A stretch of 64,000 nucleotides of DNA. Source: Rhytidiadelphus loreus (Eukaryota > Streptophyta > Bryopsida > Hypnales > Hylocomiaceae). The notes below the pieces were generated by a model. It worked only from the letters and a program-made list of their open reading frames with translations. It had not been told where the DNA came from and did not search any database. The translations under genes and the position numbers were made by a program. The stretch covers positions 82,330,981-82,394,980 of the forward strand of contig OX344762.1 in NCBI GenBank assembly GCA_947034895.1, read 5' to 3'. Every line of letters begins with the position of its first letter. Position 1 is the first letter of the stretch. Shown piece by piece: positions 1,096-20,552 of this stretch.

Positions 1096-1543
1096 CTCCC
1101 CCCTTTTTTATTCGTTTTATTTTGTATACTTTTTGTTCTATTGGAAGTAGCTGGTTCATCATACAATACATTAGTGCACCTAGTCTTCGATATGAAACGT
1201 AATAGATAACAAAAATACAATTAAAAAACAAAAAACAAAGTATGCAATAAACAAATATAAATATAAATATATTATATTGCACACTATTTATAACATCAAA
1301 TTGTGAAATAACAAGAAAATAACATCAATATAATAAACTACAATATTTTGCTAACTACATCTACTTCCTCCTTCTAAACCTTTATTTTATTTTTCGTACT
1401 TAAACATATGTATAAAAAAACTTTGAAATACTACAACTCCTCACAAATATTTTATTTTCTCTTTTTTCAAAAAGTAAGAAAATAACCAACAAAATCCTAA
1501 AACTTCTGATCACTTTCTATGCCTACTAACTATTCAAACACCC

Positions 1544-4390
1544 TCACTCCGCAGATGTATTGTTGTTTTCACCGGTCAAATAAGCATCCATTGATGCCTT
1601 GATAATAGCAATTTGATTTTTTGGAATTTTGACTTTTGGATCAGAAGTCCCTGTTCTGACACGCGGCTTCCATGCTGTCATAATACAGTCTGTATGCGTC
1701 CAGCTTGGGGAGATAGCCTTGTCCTCGCACCAAGAATTCCCTTGTTTCGTGTTCCAACCTACATATGTGTCCTCCATAGTGTGCTGAAAAGATGTTGGGG
1801 TCCAATATTGGAGCTGAATGGAATTTACATGACCTGGATCTGGATTCGGATTAGTAAGTGCACGAGCAAGCCAGAAGGGACGGAGGTCACCATCAGTAGG
1901 TCGCACTGCCACAAAGTAACCCGCATACACATCACGACCAACACGGAATGAAGGAGCTGGACGGTCACGCCTACGGCCAACGAAAGGTGCATCTTCTGCA
2001 AACTCTTCACGCATTTGACCACCGTCAAGGTACTGGTCTTCTTCCCCCTCAGCGATTTGAGATTGAGGCCAAAATCCATCTCGCAATGTTTCTTGTGCTA
2101 CAAGAGGTGCATTGAGAGCACTTCTCACACCTTCCCAGTACTTCTTCACTGGTGCATTCTTCCTTCGGTAGTCTCCAGACAAATCTTGATTTGCCATTGC
2201 CCCCCACAATGCAATGTATCCGTCCAAACCCTTGCAAACCTCATCGAAGCAACGCATATGCTGTGGTGCCAATGGTGTAGGTTTACCCCTTGGCACTTTA
2301 GGGGCCCCTTCTGCTGTCTCCTTCCACAACCGAATCCCCCCACCTTCTTTTGGCAACCAATCGACATCAGTGCACAAGATCTTGTATTGCATCAACGGCC
2401 AACCATTGGAATCTTTATAAAATTTAAATTGTTGTGCTTGAGAATGGCCTTGTAGAGAATCATCACCTGTATGCAAGTACCCTTCTACAAAGCGCTTGAA
2501 ATCAGGAACCTCCTCAATGAGGTGAGGAATGACAGGTTGAGTTTCGCAATCCATGAACGACTTCATCAACCTTGGAATGGTCGGATAGTCATTCTCCTTC
2601 AACTTAGAGCTCCATCGACCAAATAGAGCATCAATGTCCTCATGAGTGTGTCCAACGATGAGAAAATTGATGAAAACCTCTCGAAAAATAGCTCTATAGA
2701 CAAGGAGAGAACAAAATGCAAAAACCCAGCGGTTTTTATTGTCACCCGAGGCATTGTTAAGTTGTAGAGTCAATGTTGGAGGAAGAGGTTTAGCCTCGGC
2801 CAATTCTTCAGGAATTGACCCAAGGGAATCTGCACAAATATTTGAGCCCGACAATACAGCTCGCATCAATTCCGAATGACCACCTCCTACTAGCAATTCA
2901 CGAGATGAATGCTTGGGCTGCGACTCGAGATCTCGTAACAATTTAGCAATGGACCCAATGGTATGGTTGGAGTCCGTGGGAAAGATGTCCAAGCCGTAAT
3001 GTGCATATCGCACGTCTCCATGCCCATGAGCAATCATGCCCGTGACCGCAACAGGCATCTTCATATAAGAATCATTTCCCTTACTCTTGTGAGAGAAATG
3101 GGGAGAAGTTGTCTTTGAATGATCCATCTTATCATGGATTATTGTAAGAACCTTGTCAGGATACATCTCAGACATTCCACGGTTCCCATAATAAAGGTTC
3201 CTATGTGCCTTCTGTCCGTCAATGTGAGTCTTCAATTTCTTAGCCCAAATTTGTTGAGACCGAGAACCAAGAGTACAAGCATTCTTGAGCTGCTTCAGCC
3301 TATCACAATATCCACAACGTGCAAAACTATCACCTCTAGCTTTGGGGGCGTACTCCGGAAAAGATTGACGTCGAATGTTACTGAGTCCACTAGCTGAAAT
3401 ATGTTGTAATTGTAATGACAAATTCACATTGTTGATTTCCGGCAATTTGTCCTTCCACTTGAATCCAGACGAAAGAACCATAGAGGGCACTTTTTCTCCT
3501 GACTCGAGGGTCCTAGTTTTGTGTGGCATCGCGTCAGCTTCATTATCCACCAATAAACAAAGAGTCGTTGTAGCTTGCAAGGTGTGAGTTTGAGGCTTCT
3601 TCATACCCAAATTCCCATGATGTTCCGGTTTCTCCTCCCTCCTTGCTTTCTCCTTATACCTGTAGAAGGTGGCCTTCGATACTCCATGGATGTGGCACCA
3701 AGCCAATGGACAAACTTCATGCTTTGCTAAGGTAATTATGTCACTTCCATTCTCATCACAGTGGATTTGACCATGCACGTCTAGTAAACGCGATTTTCGA
3801 CTGTATACACCTCCGTCAACATACATAAGAGAACGAACGGCTTGAATTTGCCCACGTGGAAATGGTTGTACGCAGTTTTTAGAGCAGCACTCTTTGCTGG
3901 ACACCTCCGCGATGGATTGGGGGGTGAGTAGGACATCCTTCTTCGGAAGGCTGATAGGTTCCCTCCTCTCTCGAGAGCTCTCATATGAACGAACTCCAAT
4001 TCGAGGACGCCGTCTAGACCCGTTTAGTGCGGCTCTATAGAGATGTGTCTGCTCATGATCATATAGACTAGCACCATTCAGGTATACCCTCGAAATGGGC
4101 CAAGAGTGCATAGACCACATCCATTCTGAAGGAACTTCTTCCTCGCATAGAGACTCTGCTATATGAATTGCAACCCTGTTGTCAGCGAGCGGCTCCCCAT
4201 TGCTATCAATCACGAGATCTGCATCGACGTTGTGGCATATTCCTCTGGCCACTTCCGTTCCTGCTTCGTTTGTGAGTGTCACGGCCTTGGTAAACCAAGA
4301 AGGACGAGGGATACCCTCGCATGGTGCCACCCCAGGCGGGAGAGTTGGCACCGGAAGTGTAAACTCATTAGCATCTCGGGCAGTATCCAT
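1544..4390 (-). CDS. DUF7869-type transposase-like protein, 948 aa, single coding exon
   Basis: A long intronless frame starts at an ATG (4388-4390) with A at -3. Residues ~35-115 resemble the N-terminal domain of plant En/Spm Tnp1-like proteins (ARGICHNVDADLV, then PLADNRVAIH, then a W-P motif). Near residue 235 is CHIHGVSKATFYRYKEKAR, helix-turn-helix-like. A Cys pair (CGYC) is at ~360. The core is the DUF7869 signature: IIHDKMDHS, then LQLNNASGDNKNR, then FLIVGHTHEDIDALFGRW and YPTIPRLMKSF. Related proteins as I recall them read LQLDN, so the N here may replace a catalytic Asp. The C-terminus has an SH3/BAH-like stretch (VGRDVYAGYF, PFWLARAL). A DUF7869 transposase role is inference. A TTGCAG just before the ATG and a strong donor at 5717 suggest a 5'-UTR intron. 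Confidence 0.75.
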   Translation of the reverse strand: MDTARDANEFTLPVPTLPPGVAPCEGIPRPSWFTKAVTLTNEAGTEVARGICHNVDADLVIDSNGEPLADNRVAIHIAESLCEEEVPSEWMWSMHSWPISRVYLNGASLYDHEQTHLYRAALNGSRRRPRIGVRSYESSRERREPISLPKKDVLLTPQSIAEVSSKECCSKNCVQPFPRGQIQAVRSLMYVDGGVYSRKSRLLDVHGQIHCDENGSDIITLAKHEVCPLAWCHIHGVSKATFYRYKEKARREEKPEHHGNLGMKKPQTHTLQATTTLCLLVDNEADAMPHKTRTLESGEKVPSMVLSSGFKWKDKLPEINNVNLSLQLQHISASGLSNIRRQSFPEYAPKARGDSFARCGYCDRLKQLKNACTLGSRSQQIWAKKLKTHIDGQKAHRNLYYGNRGMSEMYPDKVLTIIHDKMDHSKTTSPHFSHKSKGNDSYMKMPVAVTGMIAHGHGDVRYAHYGLDIFPTDSNHTIGSIAKLLRDLESQPKHSSRELLVGGGHSELMRAVLSGSNICADSLGSIPEELAEAKPLPPTLTLQLNNASGDNKNRWVFAFCSLLVYRAIFREVFINFLIVGHTHEDIDALFGRWSSKLKENDYPTIPRLMKSFMDCETQPVIPHLIEEVPDFKRFVEGYLHTGDDSLQGHSQAQQFKFYKDSNGWPLMQYKILCTDVDWLPKEGGGIRLWKETAEGAPKVPRGKPTPLAPQHMRCFDEVCKGLDGYIALWGAMANQDLSGDYRRKNAPVKKYWEGVRSALNAPLVAQETLRDGFWPQSQIAEGEEDQYLDGGQMREEFAEDAPFVGRRRDRPAPSFRVGRDVYAGYFVAVRPTDGDLRPFWLARALTNPNPDPGHVNSIQLQYWTPTSFQHTMEDTYVGWNTKQGNSWCEDKAISPSWTHTDCIMTAWKPRVRTGTSDPKVKIPKNQIAIIKASMDAYLTGENNNTSAE

Positions 4391-4391
4391 C

Positions 4392-5717
4392 CTGCAAATA
4401 ATACAACAGATATGAGATTATTATATTGGAATTTATCCTCGCCTCAAGGATAAAGAGGCATACATGTGTTTACGAACTTATACAATTACGAACTACAACA
4501 AGAAGTAATGATTTATCACTGATTAGACGGGAAGGATTAAGTCTTACAAACAAAAGCATTGTCATTTAGTTTTTCATATTTCCAAGAATCAACTCATTAC
4601 GATACAACTATCTTTGAGTCGAAGATAAATATCAAATGAAGCAAACCCAGGAGATAGTCTAAGGTAAATCTTGTAAACATCATACTTCACCTATTACAAT
4701 TGGTCTTGATAACTATAGGTTATGTAACCCCACAATATAACTTTGTCCTCAATTCGGGGATCAGATTGTCTCGAAGATAATCATGATTGGTCCTGGGGAT
4801 CAACATTATCCTCGTGACGAGGATAATGGTGTCTAGGTTGGAATCCATTGTAAGATGATTGACATTTTCTTCGTCCCGAACAAAATTAAACGTTGTACGG
4901 ATATTAAATTTATACTTGTCTCAGAGATAATGATCTCATACAAGTTTGTACTGAAGACAATTCAATTTATCTTCGTCTCGAAGATAAGTACGATTGATAA
5001 AAGGATTGACAATGAGCTCGAATACAGGATAATGATCTATTGTATTTTCTCTACTAAAGACAATGAACTTTATCTTCGTCTCGAAGATAAGTATGACTGA
5101 TAAGAGGGTTGTTATTATCCTTGTGTCGATGATGACGATCTGCTAAATGTTCGTCACTAGATGGCAATTGAAATTATCTTCGTCTCGAAGATAAATGGGA
5201 ATCATAAGAGAACTGAATTTATCCTCTTTTTGAGGATAATTGTCTGATGGATGGTCTCTACTGTAACCAAATGGTATTTATCTTTGTCTCGAAGATAAAT
5301 AGCAGTGGTATCGGTGAAGCAATTTATCCTTCTTTCAAGGATAATGACCTGGTGATTCGTGTGTTCTGAAGGCTAATGCAATTTATCTTCGGCTCGAAGA
5401 TAAATCTGGTTGGGATAGAGGTTCAAATTAACCCCGTCTCGAGGATAATTGATGGAAAACGCAGTCACGAATCACTTCTCCGCGTTTCACGGCATAATAA
5501 TCGGGATCTAGTGTCCGCGCTTCAGTTGGCACTCAGTATGAACATTGATTGCTTAATCTTCATGCTCAGTGCTGAAACATCACTTCCAAATCTGAGACTC
5601 AAAACAATGCAGTGCATTTCCTATAACACTACGGTATAGTAACAAAGACCTCCGAATAAATGACATGAATCTCACAACTGTAATAGAAGGAGGATAACAT
5701 CGGAACATAAAACTTAC
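4392..5717 (-). other. Probable 5'-UTR intron of the DUF7869 gene, holding the palindrome array
   Basis: On the minus strand a consensus donor CTC|GTAAGTT lies at 5718/5717 and an acceptor TTTGCAG|G at 4392/4391, one base before the start codon. The 1,326-nt interval has no long coding frame and holds the palindrome array. The upstream stretch 5718-6030 looks like a plant 5' leader. No transcript evidence is available. Confidence 0.5.
4433..5448. repeat. Phased array of 21-bp palindromes (TTATCYTCG-N3-CGARGATAA), period ~104 bp
   Basis: Good copies start at 4806, 4967, 5070, 5174, 5278 and 5383. The CTTCG-type copies at 4967, 5070, 5174, 5278 and 5383 are spaced 103, 104, 104 and 105 bp. A second series with CCT/AGG arms starts at 5115 (weak), 5219, 5324 and 5428, spaced 104, 105 and 104 bp. 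Decayed members sit in phase near 4760, 4864, 4910 and 5011 (right half only). Further copies at 4433 and 4608 lie outside the strict phase. The DNA between palindromes is much more diverged than the palindromes. The array reads as an old ~104-bp tandem repeat, two palindromes per unit, whose palindromes stayed conserved. Confidence 0.85.
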
Positions 5718-6030
5718 GAGAACTCAAGCGAAATGATGCTCCCTACACACTACTAACGTCGTCGACAGAGACAAAGAAATAAACGCAGGAGTTTAGAGCT
5801 CTCGCCAGAGCAATGTCTGAGAGCGCGGAGTGGAGAATGGAATGAGCACAACAACAGATGGGTTTTCGGTAGAGAGGGACTTCGCGGGACGAATTCGGCG
5901 GGAAATTTGAACCGTTGAGAAGTTGAGGGGTCCAGAGGCGGAGTACCTCCACGCTTTATGGCCGTTGACATTTCGATTGCTCCATTTGGAGGTACTCGTG
6001 TGAGATATGGAATCACAGTTGTCTTTTGTC
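5718..6030 (-). promoter_or_regulatory. Probable promoter and 5' leader exon of the DUF7869 gene
   Basis: This stretch is less AT-rich than its surroundings. Read on the minus strand it is rich in C and T (CTCTCTACCG, TTTCTTTGTCTCTGTCG), as plant 5' leaders are, and ends at a consensus splice donor. Short overlapping open frames here show no recognisable protein. The transcription start is not determined. Confidence 0.4.
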
Positions 6031-6180
6031 AAGGAATCTGACTTTACACAAATTTTGTAGCTGTCTTTTGTGAGGCAATTTTGGATTACCTTAAATTAAA
6101 GCTACCTTTGTAGCCGTCTTTTGTGAGGGAATGGTGGATTAACTTAAATTAAAGCTGCCAAGTGCCAAGTGGAGGATTCT
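6013..6180 (+). repeat. Imperfect ~60-bp tandem repeat, about three copies
   Basis: The phrase GTCTTTTGTGAGG (or GTCTTTTGTCAAGG) recurs at about 6018, 6063 and 6116. The last two copies share a following TTAAATTAAAGCT block. No coding potential is seen. Confidence 0.6.
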
Positions 6181-6299
6181 CCTTCATTTGAGAATCCAAG
6201 TAGGAGCTCAAGTCCACCTTATTTTTAAATTTTGGACCCCACCTCCTGATTTTAGTGTTGTTTAAGAGAATTTGACCCATGATAGATGGAGGATAAAAT

Positions 6300-6375
6300 T
6301 AGTTTTCAGTAGGGTTTAGCGCCTAAGGTTAGGGTTTTTAGGGTTTAGGGTCTCCAGGGTTTTTTAGGATTTATT
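6300..6375 (+). repeat. Interstitial telomere-like repeat (TTTAGGG type)
   Basis: Degenerate runs of TTTAGGG/TTAGGG occur (GTTAGGGTTTTTAGGG, then TTTAGGGTCTCCAGGG). This is the plant telomere unit and supports a plant origin. Confidence 0.6.
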
Positions 6376-8756
6376 GTCAATTCAAAAATTCTTCAGAAAA
6401 TGAGGTCATTTTTTCAACATTTCTGTTGGAACATAAGAAGTCATTCTTTTGCTTTATCATTTTTTTCACATCCATTTCTACCTATGTTTCAACTTGTTTT
6501 CATTTACTTGAATTAGTTCTTAGAAAGGTATGAACTATCTTGCTTCTAGGGTAATTTGAGCATTTCCTCGGAAAATATCTTATAGGATGAATTGTTTTCA
6601 TTCGATTTCCTATATTTTTAAAAATGAAGGCAAATTTCACTACTATTACATTTTCTACCTATAAAACAATGTCACCATTGACATTATTGTATTCCAATTC
6701 CATGTAAAAGATATTAGCAATTTGAATTTCCTTCTCACACCTATTTGTGGTAATGAAATTTTTAAAATAAGGAATCTACATCTATTTCTTTTGAATATTT
6801 TTTCCTACATTTTTAAATTGTTTTAGCAACATTTTAAAATCATTTGCTATACATAGAACAAAATATTTTTTCAAATGGTGGTGAAAGTGAATTCAAATCC
6901 TCAACCACAATCCAAGAAAAACTTAAGGCAAGATGAATATTAATATTTTTTGATTGTAATAGTCGAACACAATGAAAATTTCATAGCATAATTTAAAAAA
7001 TCTGAAGTACAAGATCCTATTGTTATATAATGGTTTATAAGATATTTTTATGAATCATACTATTTTATGATGGTATGTACTTGAAGTTTATTAGAATTAT
7101 GAAATTTTTCTTAAAGTTAGACAACTAATGGAACTAAGCATTCAATTTGTAGGAATTATTTTTTTTCCCATTTATCATTCTTAAGAGGTTTAAAGAAGAA
7201 GACATCATGTTGAACATCATGTCTAAATAACACGATACTAATGAATTTATGCTTTGGAGCATGTCTAGCCTAAAGAGTACCGTCAATGAGTTGTTACTTT
7301 TAGCATAATTATAAGTGCCAAAAAAATAGTACAAATAAACTATAAAGAAGTACAAAATCATGATTATTTCCACCTACTAAAATCAAATTTGTAGGGGACA
7401 CTAATGTGTTTCAGATGTACAACACCATCATGTTATGAACACCATGAGTAATTAATTGTCAACATAAAAAACAAACATAATTATCAATGATGCTTAACAA
7501 TTAACTTGCAAACCGACTTTAAAATGAACTGGTACTAGACTGAAGATGTAAATACTTAATTCCATTTTTTTGTTTTAAACATTCAACTTCAATGAATTTT
7601 CCCTTATTGTACTCATTTGAAAAGTACTTCTTAGTACTAGTAACTCAATTGTTTTTTTCTAATAGTAAACTACATCCTTTGCATATTGTGTGTATTTTTA
7701 GAGTGCACTCTAACTTATAAAAAGATGAAATTCATTTTTTGTACTCTTGAAAAATTAAATTTTTACATGACAGTATTCCATTGAATACTCATGATTGGCA
7801 TTCAAAGAAATTAAACTATTATAAGATAGAGAATTGGGAATGTAAACTTAATTAAAACACATGCCTAACTTTTAAAACAACTATGAAATTGTGATAATTA
7901 CTAGTAAAAAATTAATAATACACTTTTGGAATGACCTATTATTTTGATTTGGTTAAGGGTTAAATAAAAAAAGATGTATTACTCTATAGTTTCTGTGATC
8001 CTACTATGTAATCCTTCTTCTTCATATATTCAATTTCAAAAGATATTTTCCTCCATTTCCTCAGAAATTGCATAACGTTTTTTTGTACATTCAATTCTTC
8101 ATACAACAAGAATTGTTAGTATAATTTGTAATTTATTATAGGATTGTGTGGTCTAAGCAAAACATAGTAGCGTACATTTGTTTTGTCAAAATGCCTTAGT
8201 CTTCTAAATAATTTTTTGAGAAGTTGTTACTTCAAAATTAGTTGCTCAGTGTATTTTGTCAAACTTTAAATATTACATATTACAATCATTCATGATTTAC
8301 ATGTCACTTTTGTACGTGATTACACATGGTAACTGCAATAAGAATAAAAATTTATTCATAGTACAACTAATATGCAAATCTTCAACTTTGGACCCTTTTC
8401 AAAAAAAGGTCAAATTACTAAAAGTAATTATATATATTTCAATTGATATATTTTTTGGGCCCTTCAATTTGTGCTTGCGCATCCAAGGATATTATCATAC
8501 ATGTTTTTAATGTTTGGTTAGCTTCCTCAACTTCAACCACTTCATGACCATTTTAGGATGCTCACGGTTTCACTACCAAATACTCATTGATTTCATTCAA
8601 ATTTTTTTTTGGCTTGGATGTGCTTCCACACCCAAGTATACTATCATAAGTTTAGGGAAGATGATTGTACAGTTTTCGAAGTCCTTCATGGATCATACAT
8701 AATTTTTATTTCACTCAATGACTACGAGAAAATATAACAACACTGTAAAAATCAAT
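6376..8756. other. AT-rich intergenic DNA
   Basis: Strongly AT-rich. Open frames are short, Phe/Leu/Ile-rich and unlike any family I know. No RNA gene or transposon ends were recognised. Confidence 0.5.
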
Positions 8757-8848
8757 GGCCAATTCAAATAATTCACCAAAAGTAAAATGTTTAGGAGTTG
8801 GGTTTTTAGGGTTTAGGGTTTAAGGCCAATTCAAATAATTCACCAAAA
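8757..8848 (+). repeat. Telomere-like insert flanked by a 25-bp direct repeat
   Basis: GGCCAATTCAAATAATTCAC plus CAAAA occurs at 8757-8781 and again at 8824-8848. Between the copies lies a short TTTAGGG-type tract (GGGTTTTTAGGGTTTAGGG). The two copies are identical over 25 bp, so the event looks recent. Confidence 0.7.
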
Positions 8849-10368
8849 TCATATTGTTGTCTACATATGAAGCTTAATTTTCATTCATTCTATTTGGACT
8901 AAATAATAATTATAAAATTATGGACAATACTAGCTCTTTGGGCAGTCCAAGCATCTTAATCCTAAACCTTATAATTAGGATTAATTTTTAAAACTTCTAT
9001 TAAATGTGGTCTTCCTCTAACTTCACTATCATGCAAATTACGATACTTTTGAAGTTTTAGTAACATAAAGTATTAAAAGGATAACAAGCCTTCTAATTAT
9101 TGTAGGCACTACTAATTCAAAATTATGAAGAAATTAACTTCTAGAATAAGATTCCTAAGTTTAAAAAAAAAAATATTTAGTTTTCTGGTTTTATCGTCTA
9201 CAACTTTAGGGCCAATACTTTTGAATCCAATAAAATTTATTTTGCATTTTCAGTATCGTGTTACACAATACGTACTTTTGAAAATGCAAGTTATAGTTCA
9301 AGTCATCCATAATTGCATTGCAATAAAATCATTTACTTACAACCATTCGTGTGGGAGGGAGTTTACTACATGTAGGATTTGCATGAAGAGTTATAAAATT
9401 GATAGATGGAAACAATTAAATAGAAAAAATAGAAAAAAAAAATGTATAAGATCCGAAGAATGATCTATAATATTTTAGGAATGTCATATTGAATATGGGC
9501 ATTCTTGTAGTACTTGAAATGGAAGTCTGTAAGCCAAAATTCATTGTGAAAACTTTGTTACCCTAATACTTGAGATTTGAATATATTTCTTGGATATAAA
9601 CATTATTATGCAGTTTGCCATAATATTCCCTCCAGAAGCTATATATTGGCTTCCTTAGAATAAACTGCTTCTGTCACAACATATGAAAAAGTGAGAGTAG
9701 GTAAAGACTAATGTTCAGGACTACGTATAATATTCCTAAAGCATTATTTTCAGTGTTCTAAGTGTGCTCTTCCATTTGAAGGTAAGTTTTTATTAAACAA
9801 AATTTTCATGGCATTTTCTAAAACCTTTGTATAAAGCAAGGAGTTCTACCTTTCCTACTATACAAGTTATAATAAAAATAATTTGTTGATTATTAGTCCC
9901 AAATGCACTTCCAATTGGAGCAATTATACAACAAAATAACATTTGTTGAATATTAATCTAGATAAATTAAAAAATTTGGAATTACATTTGTGACATCAAT
10001 TATAGAATTTTGTACTTAAAATCAAATGTATACTATTCCATGAATTTGTAGACCTGCTTCTTTACCATCTGCAAGATCATAATGTTCAAAGTAGCCTGTC
10101 TATTTTTTATTGGATACTATGTTTTTACAGACAAGGTTACTTACCTACAACATATTACTAAACTACGACGTAGATGTTTCGTGTCCAATGAATGACAAAG
10201 AATCTTTTTTTGTAAGACAGTAGTACAACTACTCGTCCTGAAGGTTTTATTGAGATAATTATCTTCAAGAGTAGTTTGACTTCCACTGAATGGTTTTTTA
10301 TATTTTTTAAGCTACTAATTTCCGAGGTAAAAAAAGGGATGATTTCCTTAGTTACCAATCTTTCCTTT
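8849..10368. other. AT-rich intergenic DNA
   Basis: No supported gene. Open frames are low-complexity, with no codon bias or motif to suggest a protein. Confidence 0.5.
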
Positions 10369-10976
10369 TAAGGGTTAAACATTTTGACAACGGAATTTAA
10401 GAAGAGCTTTATAAGTGTAGTTATATCCATTATTGTCAATACCCTAAACCCTAAATTACAAAATTGTCAAGAGTTTTAATTATGGAATTGAAAAATGCCA
10501 ATCCCAATGGTTGTAATGCTGTAATAATCAATCTACACCTAATGTTTTATTTCTTTTAAAAAAACATTGAAAATTGAGTAAAATAAGAGACTTCAAAGTT
10601 TATTTTAGAGTAGGTAATCTATAACTACCCGCAAACTTAAACTCCTCATAACTTTGAAAACATTAATCAAAATGGAATGATTCAGATATTTTTACATACA
10701 TATAGATATAGAAAACCAATTTCAAATTTTTATTTTTGAAAAAGTGATTTCTTACAAAAAATTTGGAGTTGCCCGCCGACCAATGAAAACTACATATAAT
10801 ACAATAACTTTTTGACCATGTCGCGAAAAGTTATAAGAACTTTAGGGCCTTGAAGCTACTACTTGGGCACATTTTCTATGAAAATTTCAAGGAAAAAAGA
10901 TAAAAATTTTGTTCGTTGTGAGTGGCTCCAAAACGCCATGTTGCCACAAAACGGCGTTTGGTCCTTCAAGGGTTAA
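10369..10976 (-). repeat. Dispersed repeat, reverse-oriented relative of the 48.5-kb TTAA element
   Basis: The right end reads GGTCCTTCAAGGG followed by TTAA. In reverse this is TTAA-CCCTTGAAGGACC, close to TTAA-CCCCTAAAGGACC at 48465. Internal landmarks also match in reverse: the AAAAAGTTAT region, 'TTTCAAATTTTTATTTTTGA', CATAACTTTGAAAAC and AACATTGAAAATTGAG. The left boundary was not found; the TTAA near 10375 lacks a matching terminus. Confidence 0.55.
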
Positions 10977-11016
10977 ATTAATGTAGAAACAGTGATTGGA
11001 AGTCCAACTACTATAG

Positions 11017-12000
11017 ATGACCTTTTTTTTTAAACAATATCTCGAGGATGAATACTTGCACTTTCATTGTGCATGGAGATTATTTGTCATCCATCTTTGG
11101 GCGGCTCGGCTTACCGAACCTGTAGGTTTGGTCTTCAGGGTTTTGCTCCGTTCGGTGCCAAACCTGCGGCTCGGCGCAGCTCTGGGACATCGTCTCCCTC
11201 CTTTCGCCGATGAAGCAGCTGGCCTGTCCAGTTGTGCGGGTTCATGCTTCCTTGTTGTGCGGGTTCATGCTTTCCTGATTTTGTGCTTTTGTGCGGGTTC
11301 TTGCTACCCAACGCTGGTGTTTTTTTTCCGCTGCATTGGTGCGGTGCTAGAGGCGTGCGATTTATGTCAGACCTGATCGGCGTGGTGGAGGCGTGTGCTA
11401 CTGGAGTTGTGGGCGACTATTGGAGTTGCGTGCGCTACTGGAGTTGCGGCGCATTTTGGTGTTGGAGGTACGTGCATTTTTGGCTGAGTCCGGTTTTTGT
11501 GCGAACTTCAGCTCCTGGGTGCGTAACTGGGTTCAGCTCTTTGTTTAGGGTTTAGCTCTTTGAATGTAGTGGCTTTGAATGTGCGCCTTCTTCGGGATTT
11601 TGCATCCGTTATTTGAATACCCTTGTTTGTTTGTGTGCTAGTGTTTGTTCCACACAACGTTCAAGTTTCCACTCCCAGATTTTAGTAGACAGCATTTTCT
11701 TTTGTTTACAAACAATCACTGTACAATCTCGCAGATCTGAATTGATCTATTTGCCGCTCAATTTCTTCCGTGTTGAGGAAGGCTCCCCTGCTGCAACGCG
11801 GATTCTCTTCAGCTCGCACCTGCAGGTCGGATTTCACTCTGGTGAACTAACGTGGATTCTCTTCAGCTCGCACCTGTAGGTCGGATTTCACTCCGGTGAG
11901 CTAACGCGGATTCTCTTCAGCTCGCACCTGCAGGTCGGATTTCACTCCGGTGAGCTGCTGGTTCCCCTAACTTCACATGTTGTGTTCCTAATGTGGCAGT
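11017..12000 (+). promoter_or_regulatory. GC-richer, pyrimidine-rich region, possible promoter/leader of the 13.3-kb gene
   Basis: Base composition rises sharply against the AT-rich DNA to the left. The open frames at 11017-11555 encode Cys/Phe/Leu-rich sequence from imperfect direct repeats (GTGCGGGTTC recurs) and do not look like a protein. It could hold the 5' leader exon of the ParB-methyltransferase gene, whose first recognised exon begins at a splice-acceptor-like TTTCAG near 13285. It could also be a retroelement remnant. Confidence 0.25.
11796..11957 (+). repeat. 54-bp tandem repeat, three copies
   Basis: Units start at 11796, 11850 and 11904 with ACGCGGATTCTC or ACGTGGATTCTC and share AGCTCGCACCTG and TCGGATTTCACT. 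The copies differ at a few positions only. Confidence 0.9.
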
Positions 12001-12418
12001 TAGTACTTTGCTTAGTTCTTTGCTTGCTCGTTTGTTTTCCTAGCTTGTTTGCTTGTTGCTTGCTTGCTTGTTTCTTAATGTTTGGCTTTATGCAGTGTAG
12101 GAGGAGTCCATACACATGGTTGAGAACTTCGTAATACTAGGTTTTGAATATGGGTTCAAAACTTCAGCCTTGTTTAATAATTCGTGGGTGCGCTGCATCG
12201 AATTTGGAGTATCATGTGCATCCCATTCATCAGAATGCAGGAATGCCACATTCTGTGACATTCCTGTGATTTTGATTTAGGATTTTAAAATACAAGATTG
12301 TGTCCCACCCTAAACCATGTAAATTCCAGAGTAACAGTAGTTCAAATTAGGGTTTCAAACTAATTACTAAGAAAATAAAACCAGAAAGTAACCAATATGA
12401 CCCAAACCTTGAACAAAG
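12001..12418. other. Intergenic, with a degenerate GCTTGTTT-type tract
   Basis: A short GCTTG/CTTGTTTGCTTG microsatellite-like stretch lies near 12015-12080. Nothing else was recognised before the palindrome block. Confidence 0.5.
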
Positions 12419-12650
12419 TTATCTTCGCCTCGAAGATAATTATGGTTGAGGCGAAGATAAGTATCCTCGCCTCGTGGATACTTATCTTCGCCTCAACCAT
12501 AATTATCTTCGAGGCGAAGATAACTTTCCCTGGGGCGGGGATAAGTATCTTCGCCTCAAAGATAACCATGTTCGCCTCGAACATAGTTACCTTCGAGGCG
12601 AAGATACTTATCCCTGCCCCAGGGAAAGTTATCTTCGCCTCGAAGATTTA
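12419..12650. repeat. Nested compound hairpins built from the palindrome family
   Basis: A perfect palindrome at 12419-12439 is followed by two larger inverted repeats. In the first, GGTTGAGGCGAAGATAAGTA is mirrored by TACTTATCTTCGCCTCAACC. In the second, TTTCCCTGGGGC...GATAAGTATCTTCGCC is mirrored by GGCGAAGATACTTATC...GCCCCAGGGAAA. Smaller TTCGCCTCGAA palindromes sit at their centres. Both strands therefore stay open and encode repeated FASKI/FEAKI-like peptides, which I treat as a by-product of the symmetry. Confidence 0.9.
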
Positions 12651-12968
12651 AAAAATAAATAAAAAAAACGAATATAAAAATAAAAAAATTTATAGAAAAA
12701 AAAAGGTTATCCTCGAGTCGAAGATAAAAGCAATAAAAAAAGATATGGAGGAAACAAAAATAAATAAAAGATACACAGAAAAAAAATAAAAAAAATAAAA
12801 AGAAAGAAAATAAAAATAAAAATAAATAAAAAAACGAAAAACGAAAAATAAAATTAAAAAAAATGAAAAAAATGAATAAAATGAATAAAAAAAAATTAAA
12901 AAAGGTTATCCTCGAGTCGAAGATAAAACCAATAAAAAAAAGATATAGAAAAATAGAAAAATAGAAAG

Positions 12969-13003
<35 letters not shown>

Positions 13004-13280
13004 TTATCCTCGAGTCGAAGATAACTAAGAAGCACATAGAATTTTCTTATAGTTATCAAGATTCATACCTCAACCATAAGGAAGTTCTCTGCAGGATAAA
13101 GGAAAGGGAATATCTTCGCCACGAGGATAACTCGTAAAACATCGGAAGAACTAAACACGACACAGTAGAGTCCCGGTACACCAATGCCCATAGAGAACTC
13201 ATTTGGAAATAGAATAAAGGAAGGTCATGTCCTCGGAACATCGATAACCCCGCACCTCATTATCTTCGTCCCGAAGATAT
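12651..13280. repeat. Palindromes spaced ~100 or 200 bp in A-rich DNA
   Basis: Members start at 12707, 12906, 13004, about 13110 and 13260; a weak one lies near 13226. Spacings of 199, 98 and 106 bp echo the ~104-bp phase of the first array. The first three share the same core (TTATCCTCGAG then TCGAAGATAA). The DNA between is A-rich low complexity, including a poly(A) run near 12969-13001. The last palindrome ends four bases before a TTTCAG acceptor-like site. Confidence 0.85.
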
Positions 13281-13332
13281 TTCAGTGAACAGAAATCCTA
13301 ACCAGAGTCTTGATGCCTGTAGAGATAAAAAC

Positions 13333-16300
13333 ATGGTAGACGATACAACCTACGATTACTCGGCCACTGAACCTTTCCTTGAACCATTCACAAAATGGGA
13401 GGGAGAAGAGCCCTTCATCAGCGACATGCCAGAACTCTACGGAGTACTCTGGCAACTCAAGCCCGTCGTCGCAGACTGGACATTCGGAGTGAACCGGTCA
13501 AAAGACTATGTATTCCTGCGATACAGGATTCTAGACTCGACGACCTTTCTAGACTGGAACATAAATGAGAAGGTGGCAAGAATCGAAAACCACCAGGGTG
13601 ACTACATAGTCGTCACCCTTGAAGTGGTCAATAACGACGGGGACGGGGTGAACCATTGCCACTCCATTGTCATCCCAAACGGTGATAGCAGAGGGCAGTT
13701 TGATTTCGAAGAACTAGTTAGCTCCCTCCACGCAACTAACCTAGTTGAATTAGCAGAGGACTTCACTCAGCTGTTCAGCCCATGGGAATGGAAAGCAGCA
13801 ATGTTCATGACGAGGAGACTGAACAACATCCTAAAATGCCTTGACAAGCACGCTATCTCGGCCAAGAGGGCGGACCCAAGAAGAGTGCAACAAATTCAGA
13901 AACCAGAGCACGATACTCAAGAACCATCAAGAAGACGAGGCAGATCTGGTAGCCGGGGGGTAAGTTGGGGTGCGAGTCGGGGAAGCGGGAGAGGGCAGGC
14001 TCGAGCACAACAACCAAAGAGAAAACCAGAAGAGACCAGCACGAGTCAACCAAACTCTAAGCGGCCAAAGGCATCCCAAGTCAGCAGGCCTGTTGCAGCA
14101 GCAGGGAGTTCGGGTTCTGCCCTAACCAATGTACAAACAGGGAGACCCGATGAAAGCAATGCGATTCAACACTACGAGCTCAAGGGAGCATACCAGAAAA
14201 AATTTCAAAAGAAAAATAAAGATTGTTTCATTTTTGACCCTGAAACATTTATGGTGAACATAAACCAGTGCTACCTAGCTAGAGCAAAGTATATCATTCG
14301 AAGGCTAGAAGAGAAAATAGTGTGCGAGCAAGTGCAAGAGCTAATTGAATTGTCAGACGAAAGGCAAAGGCAGACAATCTGTTTGACTCCAGTTGACGAT
14401 AATTTCAGACTCCTCAAAGTGCGTCCAAAATCATGGGATGAAATCAAGGACGGAAAATTCTATATCATCAACGGGTAGCATAGCATTACTGCATCGAAGA
14501 GGTTGCAGAAGGGAGGGTGCGTGGAAGAACGAAAGATCGAGCTGCAGACCTGGAGAGCCACAATTGTGTACAGTCTAGACGCCGATCAGTTGACAGAAAT
14601 CTCTGGGTGGTTTAATTCCACAAACCACCTGACCCATAGTCAGCCAACATGGGGGAATCAGATTTTGAATTGCCGATTGGTCTGGCTGGCCAACAGACGG
14701 GCGGCCGGATATAAGGGGGAAGCCGCCATAAGAAAGAATGGTGCCGTGGAGGAGGATGCAGCGTATTGGGTAAGAAGTCCACATAATTCTCACGATTCAT
14801 TACATCTTTGAGATACTTCATTCTACAAATTTTTGCCGCACTTCTTCAGTGCCTCTAGATGCATTCAGACGCTACATTATCTTCGAGTCGAAGATAATGA
14901 AATGCTTACGTTCATCGTTACATTGAATTCATTGAAATTGACTAATCTCCTGCACCCTGGACCTGCACAGAAATTTGTTGAAGGAGTAATGTACAGGCTG
15001 CAGAACATCAATCCAAAGGGAGAAGGTGCAAAGGTGAAGCTATACTCGGACATCAAAAATGAAATAAAGCTGGTCACCCTACCAGATGAAATCTACAAGC
15101 TTTGGGACGAGTTCATCCGATTGCACATGAAGGGGGGGTTGATTGATCCTGTAACTCACAAGCGTTACAGTGAAGGCAAATCATTCGACTCTAAGAAATT
15201 CAACTTGAGGAGGGAGTTTTTCAAGCATATGGGGCACCTCACAGACAAAGACCTGGAGGAGTACGTCCTCCATTTGCTTGGAAGAATTGCCGGCCGAACC
15301 AGAGACTACCCCAAAGTCTCTATCGGAAGAGCAAGGGTCTTGGTTGCGGATAACATGGCAGCAACCGACTGGGTGGAGAGAAGGAAGCGAAAAAATATCA
15401 TGCGCCAGGAGCTGCAGGCCATGGATAAGTCCTTCCACTTTGTGGACGCAAACGGCAACACAAAAGAGGAGGCATGGAGGACATTCAAACTCAATTGCCG
15501 TTTCACTGGAGCCTCTTGGGACTTCCTATTGACGGCCATCCCGAATGCATTCTTCGTGAAGCGGCTGACAAACGAGGCGAAGAAGAAGACGGCTGTTGAT
15601 TTAAAGGGAGATGATAAGTTCCCCACGGTCTTCCCCATGCTCACTCGCTTTGTGCAAACGAAGATGACTCCAAAGAACGATGGCGGAGATGTCTATATTC
15701 GGGGGCACGAATGCTTTCCCCAAGCATTTTGTACAACTAACCCATGGTCATATTTTGAGAGGAATCTGCCGCTGGCCGTCATTGACTTCCGGCAACTATC
15801 GAGGCCCGCACCTGGCGCTGGCGGTGCACCACCGGCAGGACCCTTGCTGACTTTTCTCCAGAACCATTTGCGGCCTTGCTTGTCAGCGCCCGACGTATGG
15901 TTGTGGATTATCGGAGATGACTATGACGCCGAGACTGTAATATGCTTCGCAAGGAAGCATATGAAGGAGTACATGCTGAAATTGTCCAAGTACATATCTG
16001 CCAAATCGGAGAGAAATGAAGAAGTCGTGAACCATGTGCGGACACCCGCAACCATCAAGATGCTATTCTTATTCAAGAAAGGTCCTGATGGTATGGGCAA
16101 GGGGGTCACCTCCATGAAAGACAAATATGTGACATCGGATACCACATATTACAGTGAGTGGTGGAAGAACACGGAGGCAAAGTACAGGGTTCATCACTCC
16201 GAGCTCCGCATGGAGTTCTACATCAACATACTCCAAAGCTTTTGTGTCACTGGTGAAAATGTCATCGGTATCTATCCCGGCGCAAAATTCATGATAGCAG

Positions 16301-17944
16301 CTAAGGTAAGGGATATGGCCTTGTTGAGTTTATCTTCGGGTCGAAGATATTTTTTTATGTCTTGTAGATTTGACAGCAGCTACCTCTGAATTGTTGACGT
16401 TTATAAGGTTCATTTATTTTGTCTCCTAGCCATTATCTTCGCCTCGAGGATATCAGTGCATTATGCTCAGTTCTCAGAGATGATTATTGAATTTTTTGCA
16501 GTTGTATGGACTCTACTGCTACGCTCTATTAGAGAGACATTCGTCTCAGAAGTATCGAGAGATGGTAGGAAAGTATGGGAAAAGGTTGGACATCAACGAT
16601 TTCTGTCATGACAACTCGCCATACCTCCCCAATTATATTCGACCTCGACTTCTCGGTACCCCGGAGCTTCACTCGGATACTCCCTCAGCAAGAGATGAGT
16701 ATCGAGAAGAAGCCGTCGGGGCGCAACAATTTGCAGGTGAGGACCATACGACAATCATCCTCAACGAATTCGGGTCGAACGAAAACCTCATGAACAGCGG
16801 AAATATCTCCGTCCGTGTGGAGGACTTCCAAGGGCTCGACCAAGATCCTGTATTGCCGTTCAGCGAAGGCTCCAGCAGGCTCCAACAGAAAGGAAAGTTG
16901 CCCGTCGAAGAGATCATTCCAGACGTTGATCTCAGCGACTACGAAGACAACTATTCCGATCTGGAGAACATCAATTATGACAGGGAGTTTGAAGGCGCAG
17001 GTCCATCAGGTCTCGGGGGCAATGAAGCCCAATCTAATAACCCGCCATCAGAACCTCTGTCATCCTCCAGTGTTCCGGTTGTTTCTGGACAAGTGCCACT
17101 CGTTCAAGTGAAGCAGGAGAATATAGATTTCTGGAGGGAAAGGGAAGAGAGGAAGGCCAAAAAGAGGGAAGAGGACAAGATTGAAAAGGAGAGGGTGAAG
17201 GCGTTAGAAACCGAGAATGCTAGGTTGAAGGCCGTCGACGCAGAGAACTCTAGGCTAAAGAAAATTGAGGAGGAGATGAAGGCGATGAAGGCTGCTCAAT
17301 CATCTCAGTGTAATCCCGTCCTAGAGGACTCCGGGAGGCTGAAGCCTGTTGAAGCTGCGAAAGGGGCTTTGCTAGCTCCCTGTCAGAAGTCTATTCCTCC
17401 TCCCCCTGTTGATTATCTTCGACCCGAAGATGATCATGACATTATCCCTGACGAAGACGATGGTGTTGCTCTCCTCTCCCCATGCAAAAGGAACAAAGCT
17501 GATACTGGACTTGATGATGGTGGTCTGCTGGGTTCTCAAGAGAAGGTGAATCCGAATCTAGAGGAGCAGGTAGAGCCGAATCGGTTGGAGGAGATTCAGT
17601 CCGATCATGACTTGGAGGACCTTCCTCCTCTTTCACCAAGAGAGGACAGGCCAGCTACTGCTGATTATCCTCGAGACGAGGATAAACAAGGGCAGCATAT
17701 CGAATTGGACTCTCAGGTGGAATCCATCCAAGAGACTCAAGCAGAAGAGGATAGTCTACTGGATCCCACCCCTCCGCGGAGAGTATCGCATGTGCATGAG
17801 TTGGTGGTCGAGTCGCAAAATCCGCCGGATGACTCTGACGACGATGAGGGCGAGCATGGGATGTGCGCTGCGGAGGATTCCCAGGCCCTGGAGTTTGATG
17901 AGGTAGAGCCTCATAAATCATCAGACCCCTATGATTTCTCCTAA
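13333..17944 (+). CDS. ParB/Srx-like + degenerate DNA-methyltransferase-like protein, three exons, one internal TAG
   Basis: Exons 13333-14769, 14869-16305 and 16502-17944 join in frame to ~1,438 codons. The first ATG (AACATGG) follows an acceptor-like TTTCAG, so a leader exon is likely. Residues ~1-175 are unrecognised; an Arg/Gly-rich basic linker follows. FIFDPETFMVNINQCYLAR leads to FYIING-stop-HSITASKRLQ, a ParB/sulfiredoxin-like nucleotide-binding motif (usual form NGQH) in which CAG has become TAG (14476-14478). Further on, WDFLLTAIPNAFF sits where DPPY is expected and GENVIGIYPGAKFMIAAK resembles the SAM-binding FxGxG motif, continued across the intron by YGLYCYALLERHSS. Exon 3 adds acidic low-complexity sequence and a Glu/Lys/Arg coiled coil (~17120-17300). 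Domain names are motif-based inference; DPPY residues are lost, so methylation is doubtful. Confidence 0.65.
14476..14478 (+). other. In-frame TAG inside the ParB-like motif
   Basis: The frame reads ...IINGX HSITASKRLQ... and stays open and domain-consistent on both sides. The family motif calls for Gln, so CAG to TAG, a single C-to-T change, explains it. Confidence 0.85.
14770..14868 (+). other. Intron 1 of the ParB-methyltransferase-like gene
   Basis: Donor TGG|GTAAGA and acceptor ATTCAG|ACG keep the frame (phase 0). The alternative acceptor CTTCTTCAG at 14849 shifts frame into a TAG. Confidence 0.7.
14877..14897 (+). repeat. Palindrome copy inside exon 2, encoding YLRVEDN
   Basis: A perfect TTATCTTCG-AGT-CGAAGATAA lies eight bases after the inferred exon 2 start and is read in frame as YLRVEDN. 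Confidence 0.85.
16306..16501 (+). other. Intron 2, carrying two palindromes 103 bp apart
   Basis: Donor AAG|GTAAGG and acceptor TTTTTTGCAG keep phase 0 and join the SAM-motif-like strand to YGLYCYALL. Palindrome copies start at 16330 and 16433, with last bases altered (GATAT) in both. The 103-bp spacing equals the period of the 4.4-5.4 kb array. Confidence 0.8.
17413..17433 (+). repeat. Palindrome copy in exon 3, encoding YLRPEDD
   Basis: TTATCTTCG-ACC-CGAAGATGA, with one arm mismatch, is read in frame as YLRPEDD within an acidic, probably disordered region. Confidence 0.8.
17665..17685 (+). repeat. Palindrome copy in exon 3, encoding YPRDEDK
   Basis: A perfect CCTCG-type palindrome (TTATCCTCG-AGA-CGAGGATAA) is read in the same frame relative to the motif as the other coding copies. 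Confidence 0.85.
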
Positions 17945-18452
17945 TCAAGTCAGTCGAATGCCTTGTAATGGATGTCTGTGCTGTATTTTTGAATGCCATC
18001 GATGCCGAGTGAGAGACTCTTATGTCGATTCATTCTGATTGACAGGAGGAAGTGGACAGTCTATGATTGTATGGCGTCGACGAGCTTCCCTTCTTTCACT
18101 GCGTATTGTAGAATAGTGTAGATACTCGAGAAAAATGTAGTGAAAATTTGCTCAAAATCGGGTACTGATTAGGAAATCCGTGTTTTGGGATGTACCTTGA
18201 ATTTTTTTGAAATAAATATACCAAAAATAGTTTTGTCAAAGGATCTCCTACCTAATGAACTGTTTTTGACCATGTCTGTGCTCAGCGCAAAGAAATTAGA
18301 AGCGTGCTCCGGCCGTTGGCACTCACACAATCTCTTAGCGAATGGGTTCTATTGTCGCTTAGTGGGGGTCAGAGGCCGTTGCCGTTTTGTGAGTCAACGG
18401 ATTCCGCTTTTGAACAGGTACTACATCTTTTTTTTGTGTTCTGTATGATCAG
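17945..18452 (+). other. Intergenic or leader DNA upstream of the FCP1-like gene
   Basis: No recognised coding sequence. An acceptor-like TATGATCAG ends at 18452 and fits the frame of the FCP1-like exon, so part of this stretch may be an intron or leader of that gene. Confidence 0.4.
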
Positions 18453-19289
18453 GTAGTAGCGAGGGGGAGCGCGAGTGTTCCCCGGAGTGTGATCGATGTA
18501 GTTCCCCAACCGCAACAGAAGTGGTTAAATGTGGTCTTCGATTTGAACGGGTTGCTCTGTAAGAGCGAGGGTCAAGGGCCTTACTTGAGAAAGGAGCATT
18601 ATACAATTCGCGATAATATTTTCTCCGATCGGATTCCTACCATCATTGGGACGAAGGCCGTCTTCGTTCGTCCCAACTTGAGGGAATTCTTAGACGAAGT
18701 TCATAGGTTCTCCAACCGCGTCGTAGTGTAGAGCTCTATGGTTAAGAAGAATGTGGAACCAATCGTTGGTTTCCTGTTCCAGAACTGCAGGGCGCCATTC
18801 GACATCCTAGGACAGGAGATGTGTAGGAGGATAGAGATCTCCGAGGGAAAATTCATGAAGGAGGCTGGAAGCCCTCGGAAGGATCTGCTTCTGAAAGTGC
18901 TTGACGAACAATTGTTTGTTGATGTCAATGATCCTACGTCCTTTAGTAAGGACAACACTATTCTCATTGACGACTCTCCGCAAAAGGGTGTCATGAATGA
19001 GAACGGGAATATGATTTTTGTCGAGAGTTGGAGTCGTCAGCAGCGCGATCAATTCTTGTTGGGCAAGCTGGGCCCCTGGTTGAGGCGACTCCACGAGGAG
19101 TGTCCTCTTGGTAGCTTGCGCGAGTTTGTAGATGGGAACCGCATTGGTTTGCCTCCGATGTCCCATACCGATGATAGGGCAGAATATATTTTGGATGGAA
19201 TGAGGAATTCCGCCAAGAAGTTTGGTTCTCGTTTTGTTTTGCCCGGAATGAATGTAGTGATTGAGCCGGATAAACGTAGGAAAAAATAG
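18453..19289 (+). pseudogene. FCP1/SCP-like (HAD) phosphatase domain protein with an internal TAG
   Basis: The frame runs from an acceptor-like site at 18452 to TAG at 19287-19289, interrupted by one TAG at 18729-18731. HAD motif I reads VVFDLNGLLC; canonical FCP1 enzymes have DxDx[T/V], so the second Asp is Asn. Motif II should be VVVWSSM, but reads VVV-stop-SSM (TGG to TAG). Motif IV, TILIDDSP, is intact, and the downstream 'NMIFVESW' and 'GPWLRRL' blocks fit the FCP1 homology domain. With the lost general acid and the nonsense codon, a working phosphatase is unlikely unless the stop is read through. It lies 0.5 kb after the ParB-methyltransferase gene on the same strand and shares its single-TAG decay. 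Upstream exons are not identified. Confidence 0.65.
18729..18731 (+). other. In-frame TAG in FCP1 motif II
   Basis: The stop replaces the Trp expected before SS in VVVWSS, a single G-to-A change from TGG. The frame is open for 83 codons before it and 186 after. Confidence 0.85.
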
Positions 19290-19658
19290 ACTTATCTGTG
19301 TAGTGCTCGATTCTGTACATGTTGTGAATACGGATTTTTATGTAAATTTTGTTTTTCTATTTAGTAAAATTTTAAAATTTGTTTTGAACATACTTTTACT
19401 GGCAATACTGAATTTCCTTTCAGCAAATCAGTGTGGGAATGTTCTTGTATGTTTATTTTTCTTCAGGTCTAAGCTAATTTCATTATGTCCTTGTCTGGTT
19501 CAATGTTGTATTTAGTTAGTAGTCAGGTATCTTTGGGCCCAGGATAATTTGAAAAATTATTGTGTTTCGTGTGGGTTGAGGATTTATGGTTCAAATTGCC
19601 AGATATCTTTGGATGGATGATAATTTTTGGAGGTATTCAATTCATTTTATCTCTGCAG
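19290..19658 (+). other. Spacer before the Ser-rich exon
   Basis: T-rich sequence ending in a strong acceptor (TTTTATCTCTGCAG at 19658). It may be an intron of the following gene. No donor exon was assigned. Confidence 0.4.
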
Positions 19659-20552
19659 GTCGAAGGGTCCATAGATGAACTGCTTCGACGCAGGCAACCA
19701 ATGACCAGGAGTCTCTTGTCAGGCTCCAATGCACCGCTGTCAAGGTTCTCAGCTTCGGCTGGTGGAAGCGGCATGCCCTTGTCTTATTCTAGGCCTTTCT
19801 TTCTTGGCATTGCCACAGATGTGGCTTCGGCAGCCATTGACTTCTCAAAGGGGAATGTAGAGGACGGCGTGGTAGACAGCCCACCAAGTCGGGGTCCAGT
19901 GAGGACCCCGATTTGCTCGCCGTCCCCAAAAAAGATGTCAACATGTACGCCAAGTCGATTGCGGTCGCAGTCACCAACTCTACGCACTCCAAACATTCCA
20001 CATCGGAAATTGTACGTGGATGACAATGGACACGCTGATAATCCTCAACGGCAAGATGGAGGTCCGTCGCCAACAGCTACTGCACATCGCCTTCTTCAGA
20101 GAGACGATGACAATACAGATTCCGCGGATGCGAATCATGGAAAGAGGATTTCGTTGATGGCTTTGTCTTCGGGTCATATACCGCCCCTTCTAGAGAGCGC
20201 CCGTTCCGAATCTGTGGGAGGCGGATCTTTGCCTCTTGCTAGGAATATTTCTCGCCAAAAAAGTCTTGGTACAGACTTTGGGCGGTCAAATTACACACGA
20301 TCTACTGCAACCGCCCTTCCATTCTTAAACACTGTCAATAGACCAATTCCGAGGCCGCCTCGTCGAAGCTGTAGATCTCTTTCCAACGATGGCATTTCCG
20401 GGCGTGAACACAAGCGGCGTCGAGTGATCAAGGAACATATTCAAGATCAGTACTATGGGCCTTCTCGACGCGAGGATATTTTCAGAGGTTTGGCAAAGTT
20501 GAAAGCAGTTGAGGCAACAAAGAGTAGTTCGTCCACAAAGGAGAATAATTAG
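19659..20552 (+). CDS. Unrecognised Ser/Arg/Pro-rich protein, last exon
   Basis: From the acceptor at 19658 the frame is open for 298 codons to TAG at 20550-20552. It is rich in Ser, Arg, Pro and Asp, with short basic/proline stretches (SPSPKKMSTCTPSRLRSQSP, REHKRRRVIKEHI) and no domain I know. It looks disordered and probably nuclear (REHKRRR is NLS-like). It may be the 3' exon of a gene whose start lies upstream, possibly the FCP1-like gene by alternative splicing. Its codon use and GC content match the 13-19 kb genes rather than the flanks. No palindrome copy lies in it. Confidence 0.45.
   Translation, partial: VEGSIDELLRRRQPMTRSLLSGSNAPLSRFSASAGGSGMPLSYSRPFFLGIATDVASAAIDFSKGNVEDGVVDSPPSRGPVRTPICSPSPKKMSTCTPSRLRSQSPTLRTPNIPHRKLYVDDNGHADNPQRQDGGPSPTATAHRLLQRDDDNTDSADANHGKRISLMALSSGHIPPLLESARSESVGGGSLPLARNISRQKSLGTDFGRSNYTRSTATALPFLNTVNRPIPRPPRRSCRSLSNDGISGREHKRRRVIKEHIQDQYYGPSRREDIFRGLAKLKAVEATKSSSSTKENN

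What the first reader, a model, noticed from the sequence alone, without database searches (positions are those of the whole stretch)
4433..17685. A 21-bp palindrome family shared by two divergent genes
At least 20 copies of TTATCYTCG-N3-CGARGATAA, several perfect, occur between 4.4 and 17.7 kb and none was seen by eye in the rest of the 64 kb, including the NAT and B3-CW genes. They sit in the probable 5' intron of the DUF7869 gene and in the upstream DNA, exons and an intron of the ParB-methyltransferase gene. The simplest reading is one mobile or regulatory system that includes both genes, with the palindrome as binding site of one of its proteins. The link is inference; the motif distribution is directly visible.
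Basis: partly seen in the sequence, partly recalled or inferred. Interest (0 to 1): 0.88.

Follow-up and report, generated by a model that had tools for sequence, protein, structure and literature searches.

The report
Self-tagging palindromes of a giant transposon
A plant genome holds many copies of a very large jumping gene that carries its own ParB-like protein gene and is studded with dozens of copies of one 21-letter mirror-image DNA word, which looks like the address tag by which the element's own protein finds it.

The parts
331..21008 (.). giant TIR DNA transposon, 20,678 bp
   Evidence: boundaries from comparison of copies, inverted ends and target duplication
327..330 (.). target-site duplication TTGT, left copy
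   Evidence: five other copies also have perfect 4-bp duplications (cttg, tata, gtac, taca, ttta)
21009..21012 (.). target-site duplication TTGT, right copy
331..357 (+). left terminal inverted repeat AAGGGCATATTCATTAAAATGAGACAA
   Evidence: 27 nt, 96% complementary to 20982-21008
20982..21008 (-). right terminal inverted repeat
1544..4390 (-). DUF7869 gene (948 aa), probable DDE-type transposase
   Evidence: PF25273 E 1.4e-46; conserved HDKMDHSKT, DN and GHTHxDID blocks
4392..5717 (-). predicted 5' intron of the DUF7869 gene, host of the first palindrome array
   Evidence: acceptor GCAG directly before the ATG in the window and four other copies; donor GTAAGT at 5717 in the window
4433..5448 (.). 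palindrome array 1 (13 sites)
12419..13280 (.). palindrome array 2 upstream of the ParB-methyltransferase gene (13 sites), beginning with about 11 abutting 21-bp units at 12419-12649
13333..14769 (+). ParB-methyltransferase-like gene, exon 1: N-terminal domain, linker predicted disordered, ParB CTPase-like domain; in-frame TAG at 14476-14478
14770..14970 (+). intron 1 with palindrome 14877-14897
   Evidence: splice sites and alignment with five other copies
14971..16305 (+). exon 2: helical region, then beta-class DNA-methyltransferase fold (residues 238-445) without DPPY
16306..16501 (+). intron 2 with palindromes 16330-16350 and 16433-16453
16502..17944 (+). exon 3, weakly conserved, with coding palindromes 17413-17433 and 17665-17685
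   Evidence: 33-36% identity to six other copies; the five full ones have two or more sites in this exon
18435..19289 (+). NIF/FCP1-like phosphatase gene, interrupted by an in-frame TAG
   Evidence: PF03031; present in six other copies
19457..19623 (.). degenerate third palindrome cluster (19527 at 3 mismatches; 19457 and 19603 at 4)
   Evidence: the five other full copies have 1 to 7 good sites here, mostly 37 bp apart
19659..20552 (+). gene X, main exon, no known domain
   Evidence: no Pfam match; 54-55% identity to six other copies

Best explanation
The palindromes are the element's own address tags. A 20.7-kb terminal-inverted-repeat DNA transposon (probably Sola1-type, transposase = DUF7869) carries an accessory gene for a protein with a ParB CTPase-type domain fused to a DNA-methyltransferase fold that has lost its catalytic motif. 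That protein, as a dimer, probably recognises TTATCYTCG-N3-CGARGATAA, much as bacterial ParB, Noc and KorB recognise palindromic sites, loads at the arrays in and next to the 5' parts of the element's genes, and thereby marks the element as 'self' and keeps its promoters active (anti-silencing or autoregulation, as VANC21 does for VANDAL21). Shown: the transposon, both genes in it, near-exclusive and dense placement of the motif, conservation of the motif against diverged background and in homologues from other records, the ParB and methyltransferase folds as predictions. Inferred: which protein binds, that binding spreads or uses CTP, and the effect on expression.
Against: No binding data. 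No ParB Pfam match in P0101 or any of 22 relatives. The ParB block reads GQHS where canonical ParB has GERR (recalled), so CTP use is uncertain. The DNA-recognition helix was not identified. Other element proteins (DUF7869, X, the phosphatase) are equally linked to the motif. The two palindrome arms covary, which a plain dimer site does not require. The number of sites per intron differs (intron 1: one in the window, two in the other five). Sites in arrays were picked by their match to the motif, which favours core over linker in the within-array comparison.
Confidence: 0.5

Rival explanations
1. The palindromes are internal binding sites of the transposase (DUF7869) that help assemble the transposition complex or titrate or autoregulate transposase.
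For: A roughly 250-bp MITE-like piece with similar ends keeps two palindromes. DUF7869 has an HTH-like stretch (GVSKATFYRYK; weak IS66 TnpA match, E 0.0027, below cut-off). One of the two large arrays lies in its own 5' intron.
Against: The ends carry a different repeated word (TTCATTAAAWTGAGACAA). In the six full copies sites with at most 2 mismatches begin 3.7-4.1 kb from the left end and stop 1.4-3.3 kb from the right end; only a 3-mismatch site lies nearer, about 0.8 kb from the left end in five copies. A copy without the DUF7869 coding region still holds 36 sites. One decayed, diverged DUF7869 fragment (40-48% identity) has no site with up to 4 mismatches in the 8 kb around it (n = 1).
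Confidence: 0.17
2. The palindromes act as RNA hairpins in the pre-mRNA (splicing or export control), not as DNA sites.
For: Arms covary (positions 6/16, pooled Fisher p 6e-9 on distinct sequences; arms more complementary than permuted ones, 7.90 against 7.57 of 9). 18 of the window's 32 sites lie in predicted introns or an exon.
Against: The bases themselves are nearly fixed, which pairing alone does not need. Related array units inflate the covariation.
Confidence: 0.1
3. The palindromes recruit a host factor, for instance a GATA-type zinc-finger protein (half-sites hold GATAA), as promoter or intron enhancers.
For: AGATAA / TTATCT half-sites; placement near gene starts.
Against: Over half of the right half-sites are GGATAA (113 G against 80 A at position 16 of 196 sites), a poor GATA site (recalled). 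The neighbouring TCG/CGA and the fixed 3-bp gap exceed what GATA factors need. A host regulatory site should also occur at host genes, but none of the 87 perfect sites listed lies outside this element group.
Confidence: 0.12
4. The arrays are by-products of tandem duplication and template-switch correction of palindromes, without function.
For: Array lengths and periods (21, 37, 40, about 52, 73 bp) vary among copies; arms covary, as quasi-palindrome correction would cause.
Against: Single sites, not in arrays, are kept in introns 1 and 2 and in exon 3 across families whose introns otherwise share only 44-45%, and in homologues from other records.
Confidence: 0.06

Closest known systems
Sola1-1_Ec32 of the brown alga Ectocarpus (PMC12477816, passages only)
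   Same: giant DNA transposon (21.5 kb; here 20.7 kb) with a gene on the strand opposite to the transposase whose product joins a ParB-like and a DNA-methyltransferase domain; Sola2 elements have 4-bp duplications (PMC3627910, passages)
   Different: the passages describe no repeated palindrome or target site; probably a plant here; the methyltransferase fold here lacks the DPPY motif; homology between DUF7869 and Sola1 transposases not tested
VANDAL21 / VANC21 anti-silencing system of Arabidopsis (PMC5735166, abstract and sections 8 and 9)
   Same: TE-encoded protein; short motif in tandem repeats within introns and upstream of the element's own genes; dense only in the element
   Different: 9-bp non-palindromic motif, mainly non-coding; VANC has DUF1985/DUF287, not ParB; its targets change quickly, whereas this palindrome is kept across deep divergence and also lies in coding sequence
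Bacterial ParB, Noc and KorB (structures 7bnk, 7bm8, 7ol9, 8qa8) with their palindromic sites (recalled)
   Same: CTPase-domain fold; palindromic DNA sites
   Different: eukaryotic transposon, fused to a methyltransferase fold, 21-bp site with 3-bp gap, GQHS instead of GERR (recalled); no ParA-like Pfam match among the 8 pieces scanned
Transposons with epigenetic cargo: TET/JBP in fungal DNA transposons (PMC12730594, abstract) and DNMTs in retrotransposons (PMC5890265, search listing only)
   Same: mobile elements carrying DNA-modification-type genes, thought to counter silencing
   Different: different enzyme classes; no dedicated site family in what I saw

Membership tests
Sola-type TIR DNA transposon | 4-bp target-site duplication | tested here: met
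   6 of 6 copies with both ends read; feature from PMC3627910, stated there for Sola2
Sola-type TIR DNA transposon | terminal inverted repeats | tested here: met
   27 nt, 96% complementary
Sola-type TIR DNA transposon | transposase homologous to Sola1 transposases | not tested
   no Sola reference protein was at hand; DUF7869 shows D, DN and D/E blocks only
Sola1 giant element with ParB-methyltransferase cargo | cargo gene opposite to the transposase with both domains | tested here: met
ParB superfamily | ParB CTPase-domain fold | tested here: met
   [not shown]
ParB superfamily | match to ParB sequence profile (Pfam) | tested here: not met
   no ParB match in P0101 or 22 relatives
ParB superfamily | CTP-binding GERR-type motif (recalled) | tested here: inconclusive
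   invariant INGQH block instead
ParB superfamily | binds a palindromic site | not testable with these tools
   palindrome present, binding not assayed
beta-class amino DNA methyltransferase | fold | tested here: met
   [not shown]
beta-class amino DNA methyltransferase | catalytic [DNS]PP[YFW] | tested here: not met
   0 of 66 aligned sequences: the window and 65 of 99 homologues
VANC anti-silencing proteins | DUF1985 / DUF287 domains | tested here: not met
   no such match in the 8 window pieces or 5 pieces of other copies
VANC anti-silencing system (works like) | self-specific motif arrays in introns and upstream regions | tested here: met
VANC anti-silencing system (works like) | binding causes loss of DNA methylation | not testable with these tools
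   no methylation or expression data

The most novel reading that the evidence does not exclude
This is a eukaryotic ParB-parS system turned into a transposon's self-recognition and anti-silencing device: a ParB-type clamp fused to a catalytically dead methyltransferase fold loads at a conserved 21-bp palindrome, spreads over the roughly 20-kb element and protects its transcription, with the site so constrained that it persists even inside a coding exon and in other genomes.
Probability: 0.28. Interest if true: 0.87.

Novelty: new variant of a known kind. Interest (0 to 1): 0.68.

Why it matters
The passages read in PMC12477816 suggest that ParB-methyltransferase proteins of giant algal transposons may bind and modify their own element; I found no target sequence described for them. 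This work supplies a concrete, dense, conserved candidate site and shows that the methyltransferase part lacks its catalytic motif in all 66 sequences aligned, which points to binding rather than marking by methylation. One gel-shift experiment can now decide it. If right, ParB-type sequence-specific loading also works in a plant nucleus, and transposons have evolved a second, unrelated VANC-like self-recognition system.

Tried and rejected
Even spread of the motif over the genome: rejected. A short repeat array or satellite rather than an element: rejected by inverted ends and target duplications. The palindromes as the terminal transposase repeats: the ends carry another word. Active methyltransferase: the catalytic motif is missing in 66 of 66 sequences aligned. 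RNA-hairpin strand test: not significant. Viral relatives: one IMG/VR contig (L029) has one exact match, about what chance allows in so large a collection (my estimate, not a call); its genes were not examined. PHROGs, NCBIfam and PDB sequence searches gave no family for the ParB-methyltransferase protein. The third reading-frame peptide of the palindrome was counted (3 and 2 hits in exon-2 and exon-1 homologues, 0 in DUF7869 homologues) but not examined. A genome-wide count of terminal repeats and of the MITE-like piece was tried and never answered; so were single searches with two distant homologues, not repeated. Transposase homology to Sola1 could not be tested. Papers: ten searches; DUF7869 occurs in no held paper; Petroll et al. 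2025 is not held; Iyer et al. 2011 was seen only as a fragment of a reference entry, its authors recalled. PMC7466625: passages only, nothing relevant.

Full report
Observation. The pattern TTATCYTCGNNNCGARGATAA with up to 3 mismatches occurs 32 times in the window (12 perfect), 0.03 being expected. All but one lie at 4433-17685; the other is a weak site at 19527. The window lies on contig C2 of a 407-Mb assembly with five contigs of 51-94 Mb among 489. TTTAGGG-like runs in the window and the named DUF7869 relatives (Ceratodon purpureus, Physcomitrium patens) suggest a moss or another land plant. The species was not identified.

It is a transposon. I fetched the stretches of contig C1 around the sites that one search listed. 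The six large clusters of sites are copies of one element with the same gene order: DUF7869 (minus), then ParB-methyltransferase-like, NIF/FCP1-like phosphatase, and X (plus); one of the six (C1:1.55 Mb) lacks the DUF7869 coding region, and its left end was not found. Blastn boundaries and the end sequences show inverted ends close to AAGGSCATATTCATTAAAWTGAGACAA and perfect 4-bp target duplications in 6 of 6 copies with both ends read, the window's included: TTGT at 327-330 and 21009-21012. The window element spans 331-21008. A sibling at C2:372 kb is about 98% identical over most of the part fetched.

Motif and element. In six full copies (the window's and five on C1) 196 sites with up to 3 mismatches lie inside; none lies in about 92 kb of flanks. 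Five 10-kb places at round coordinates hold none with up to 4 mismatches. The genome total is 8,601 against 532 for the reversed pattern. From one search's list, counted by hand, 85 of 87 distinct perfect sites in the first 7.3 Mb of C1 fall in the six C1 copies; the other two are in a MITE-like piece and in a diverged, decayed relative whose first exon is 39% identical over 176 residues. Of 48 DUF7869 copies listed (of 2,175 first-look candidates), 37 have a divergent exon-2 copy of the ParB gene within 30 kb on the expected side, with 95 exon-2 copies used (of 1,007 candidates; a 56-residue fragment, the last row, was left out); random placement gives 0.17 on average and 2 at most, and the wrong side holds 1. 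Both lists are cut, so 37 is a lower bound.

Where the sites sit. Array 1 lies in a predicted 5' intron of the DUF7869 gene: an acceptor stands directly before the ATG in the window and four other copies, and a GTAAGT donor at 5717 in the window. Array 2 lies in the 0.9 kb before the start codon of the ParB gene; whether that stretch is transcribed is not known. It begins with about eleven abutting 21-bp units that form 55- and 70-nt inverted repeats. Single sites lie in introns 1 and 2 and in coding exon 3. A third array (1 to 7 good sites, mostly 37-bp period) precedes the main exon of X in the five other full copies and is degenerate in the window. Periods differ (21, 37, 40, about 52, 73 bp), so no fixed helical phase is kept.

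Constraint. Flanking positions carry at most 0.54 bits, core positions up to 1.95. In introns 1 and 2 the window and five other copies share 87% and 91% of core bases but only 44% and 45% elsewhere; intron 1 has one palindrome in the window and two in the others. In 8 of 8 regular arrays, from five copies, the core differs less among units than the linker (0.00-0.11 against 0.13-0.54); sites were chosen by their match, which biases this comparison. In exon 3, where protein identity to the window is 33-36%, two or more palindromes are present in all six full copies. Across records: protein predictions that run past exon 1 into intron 1 encode the palindrome (LSSxR[RG] or Y[PL]RxED) in 8 of 24 homologues, 42-58% identical to P0101, and 6 of 99 exon-2 homologues do so near an end; reversed peptides give 0 of 123; among 99 DUF7869 homologues there is 1 forward and 1 reversed hit. 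The organisms behind these records are mostly unnamed, so 'other genomes' rests on the divergence. Positions 6 and 16 covary, which fits perfect-palindrome upkeep by a dimer site, a hairpin, or template-switch correction; related units inflate the p value.

Mechanism. The element encodes a ParB-type protein, a class whose known bacterial members bind palindromes, and carries on average about 33 palindromes per full copy placed before and within its genes. The simplest mechanism is self-recognition: the protein binds its own palindromes to keep the element's genes on, or to regulate them. The closest functional parallel is VANC21, which binds YAGTATTAY arrays in introns and upstream regions of VANDAL21 and causes methylation loss. 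Against a quick copy of that story: this motif is palindromic, long, and conserved across deep divergence, whereas VANC targets change quickly.

Prior knowledge. [quoted passage not shown] So the element type is known. The palindrome family, its conservation and the loss of the catalytic motif were not met in the passages, abstracts and sections I saw or in the listings of ten searches; most subscription journals are not held.

Noticed in passing
window 21403-21632: Near-perfect 119-nt inverted repeat (99% complementary, arms overlapping), a fold-back element just outside the transposon's right end.
   Followed up: no
window 21118-21323: MITE-like inverted repeat beside the transposon; a related piece lies inside the copy at C1:1.55 Mb (local 19487-19711), which suggests that this copy was hit by it.
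   Followed up: no
L025:6335-6615 (C1:4716335-4716615): MITE-like piece of about 250 bp with ends resembling the giant element and two palindromes; it may show that the palindrome matters for mobility in trans.
   Followed up: partly
window 14476-14478 and 18729-18731: In-frame TAG codons in the ParB block and in the NIF/FCP1-like gene: this copy is probably inactive. The second half of the phosphatase frame also has 1 or 2 stops in each of six other copies, perhaps an unrecognised intron.
   Followed up: partly
L009-L011 (C1:320118-345965): This copy is 25.8 kb, with roughly 7 kb of extra sequence between the two divergent genes.
   Followed up: no
window 52701-53166: 231-bp unit in two nearly identical tandem copies (99%).
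   Followed up: no
window 27577-28095: Tandem repeats of 69/139 bp rich in CCCCTCCC and GAACTGGAC words.
   Followed up: no
[not shown]
   Followed up: partly
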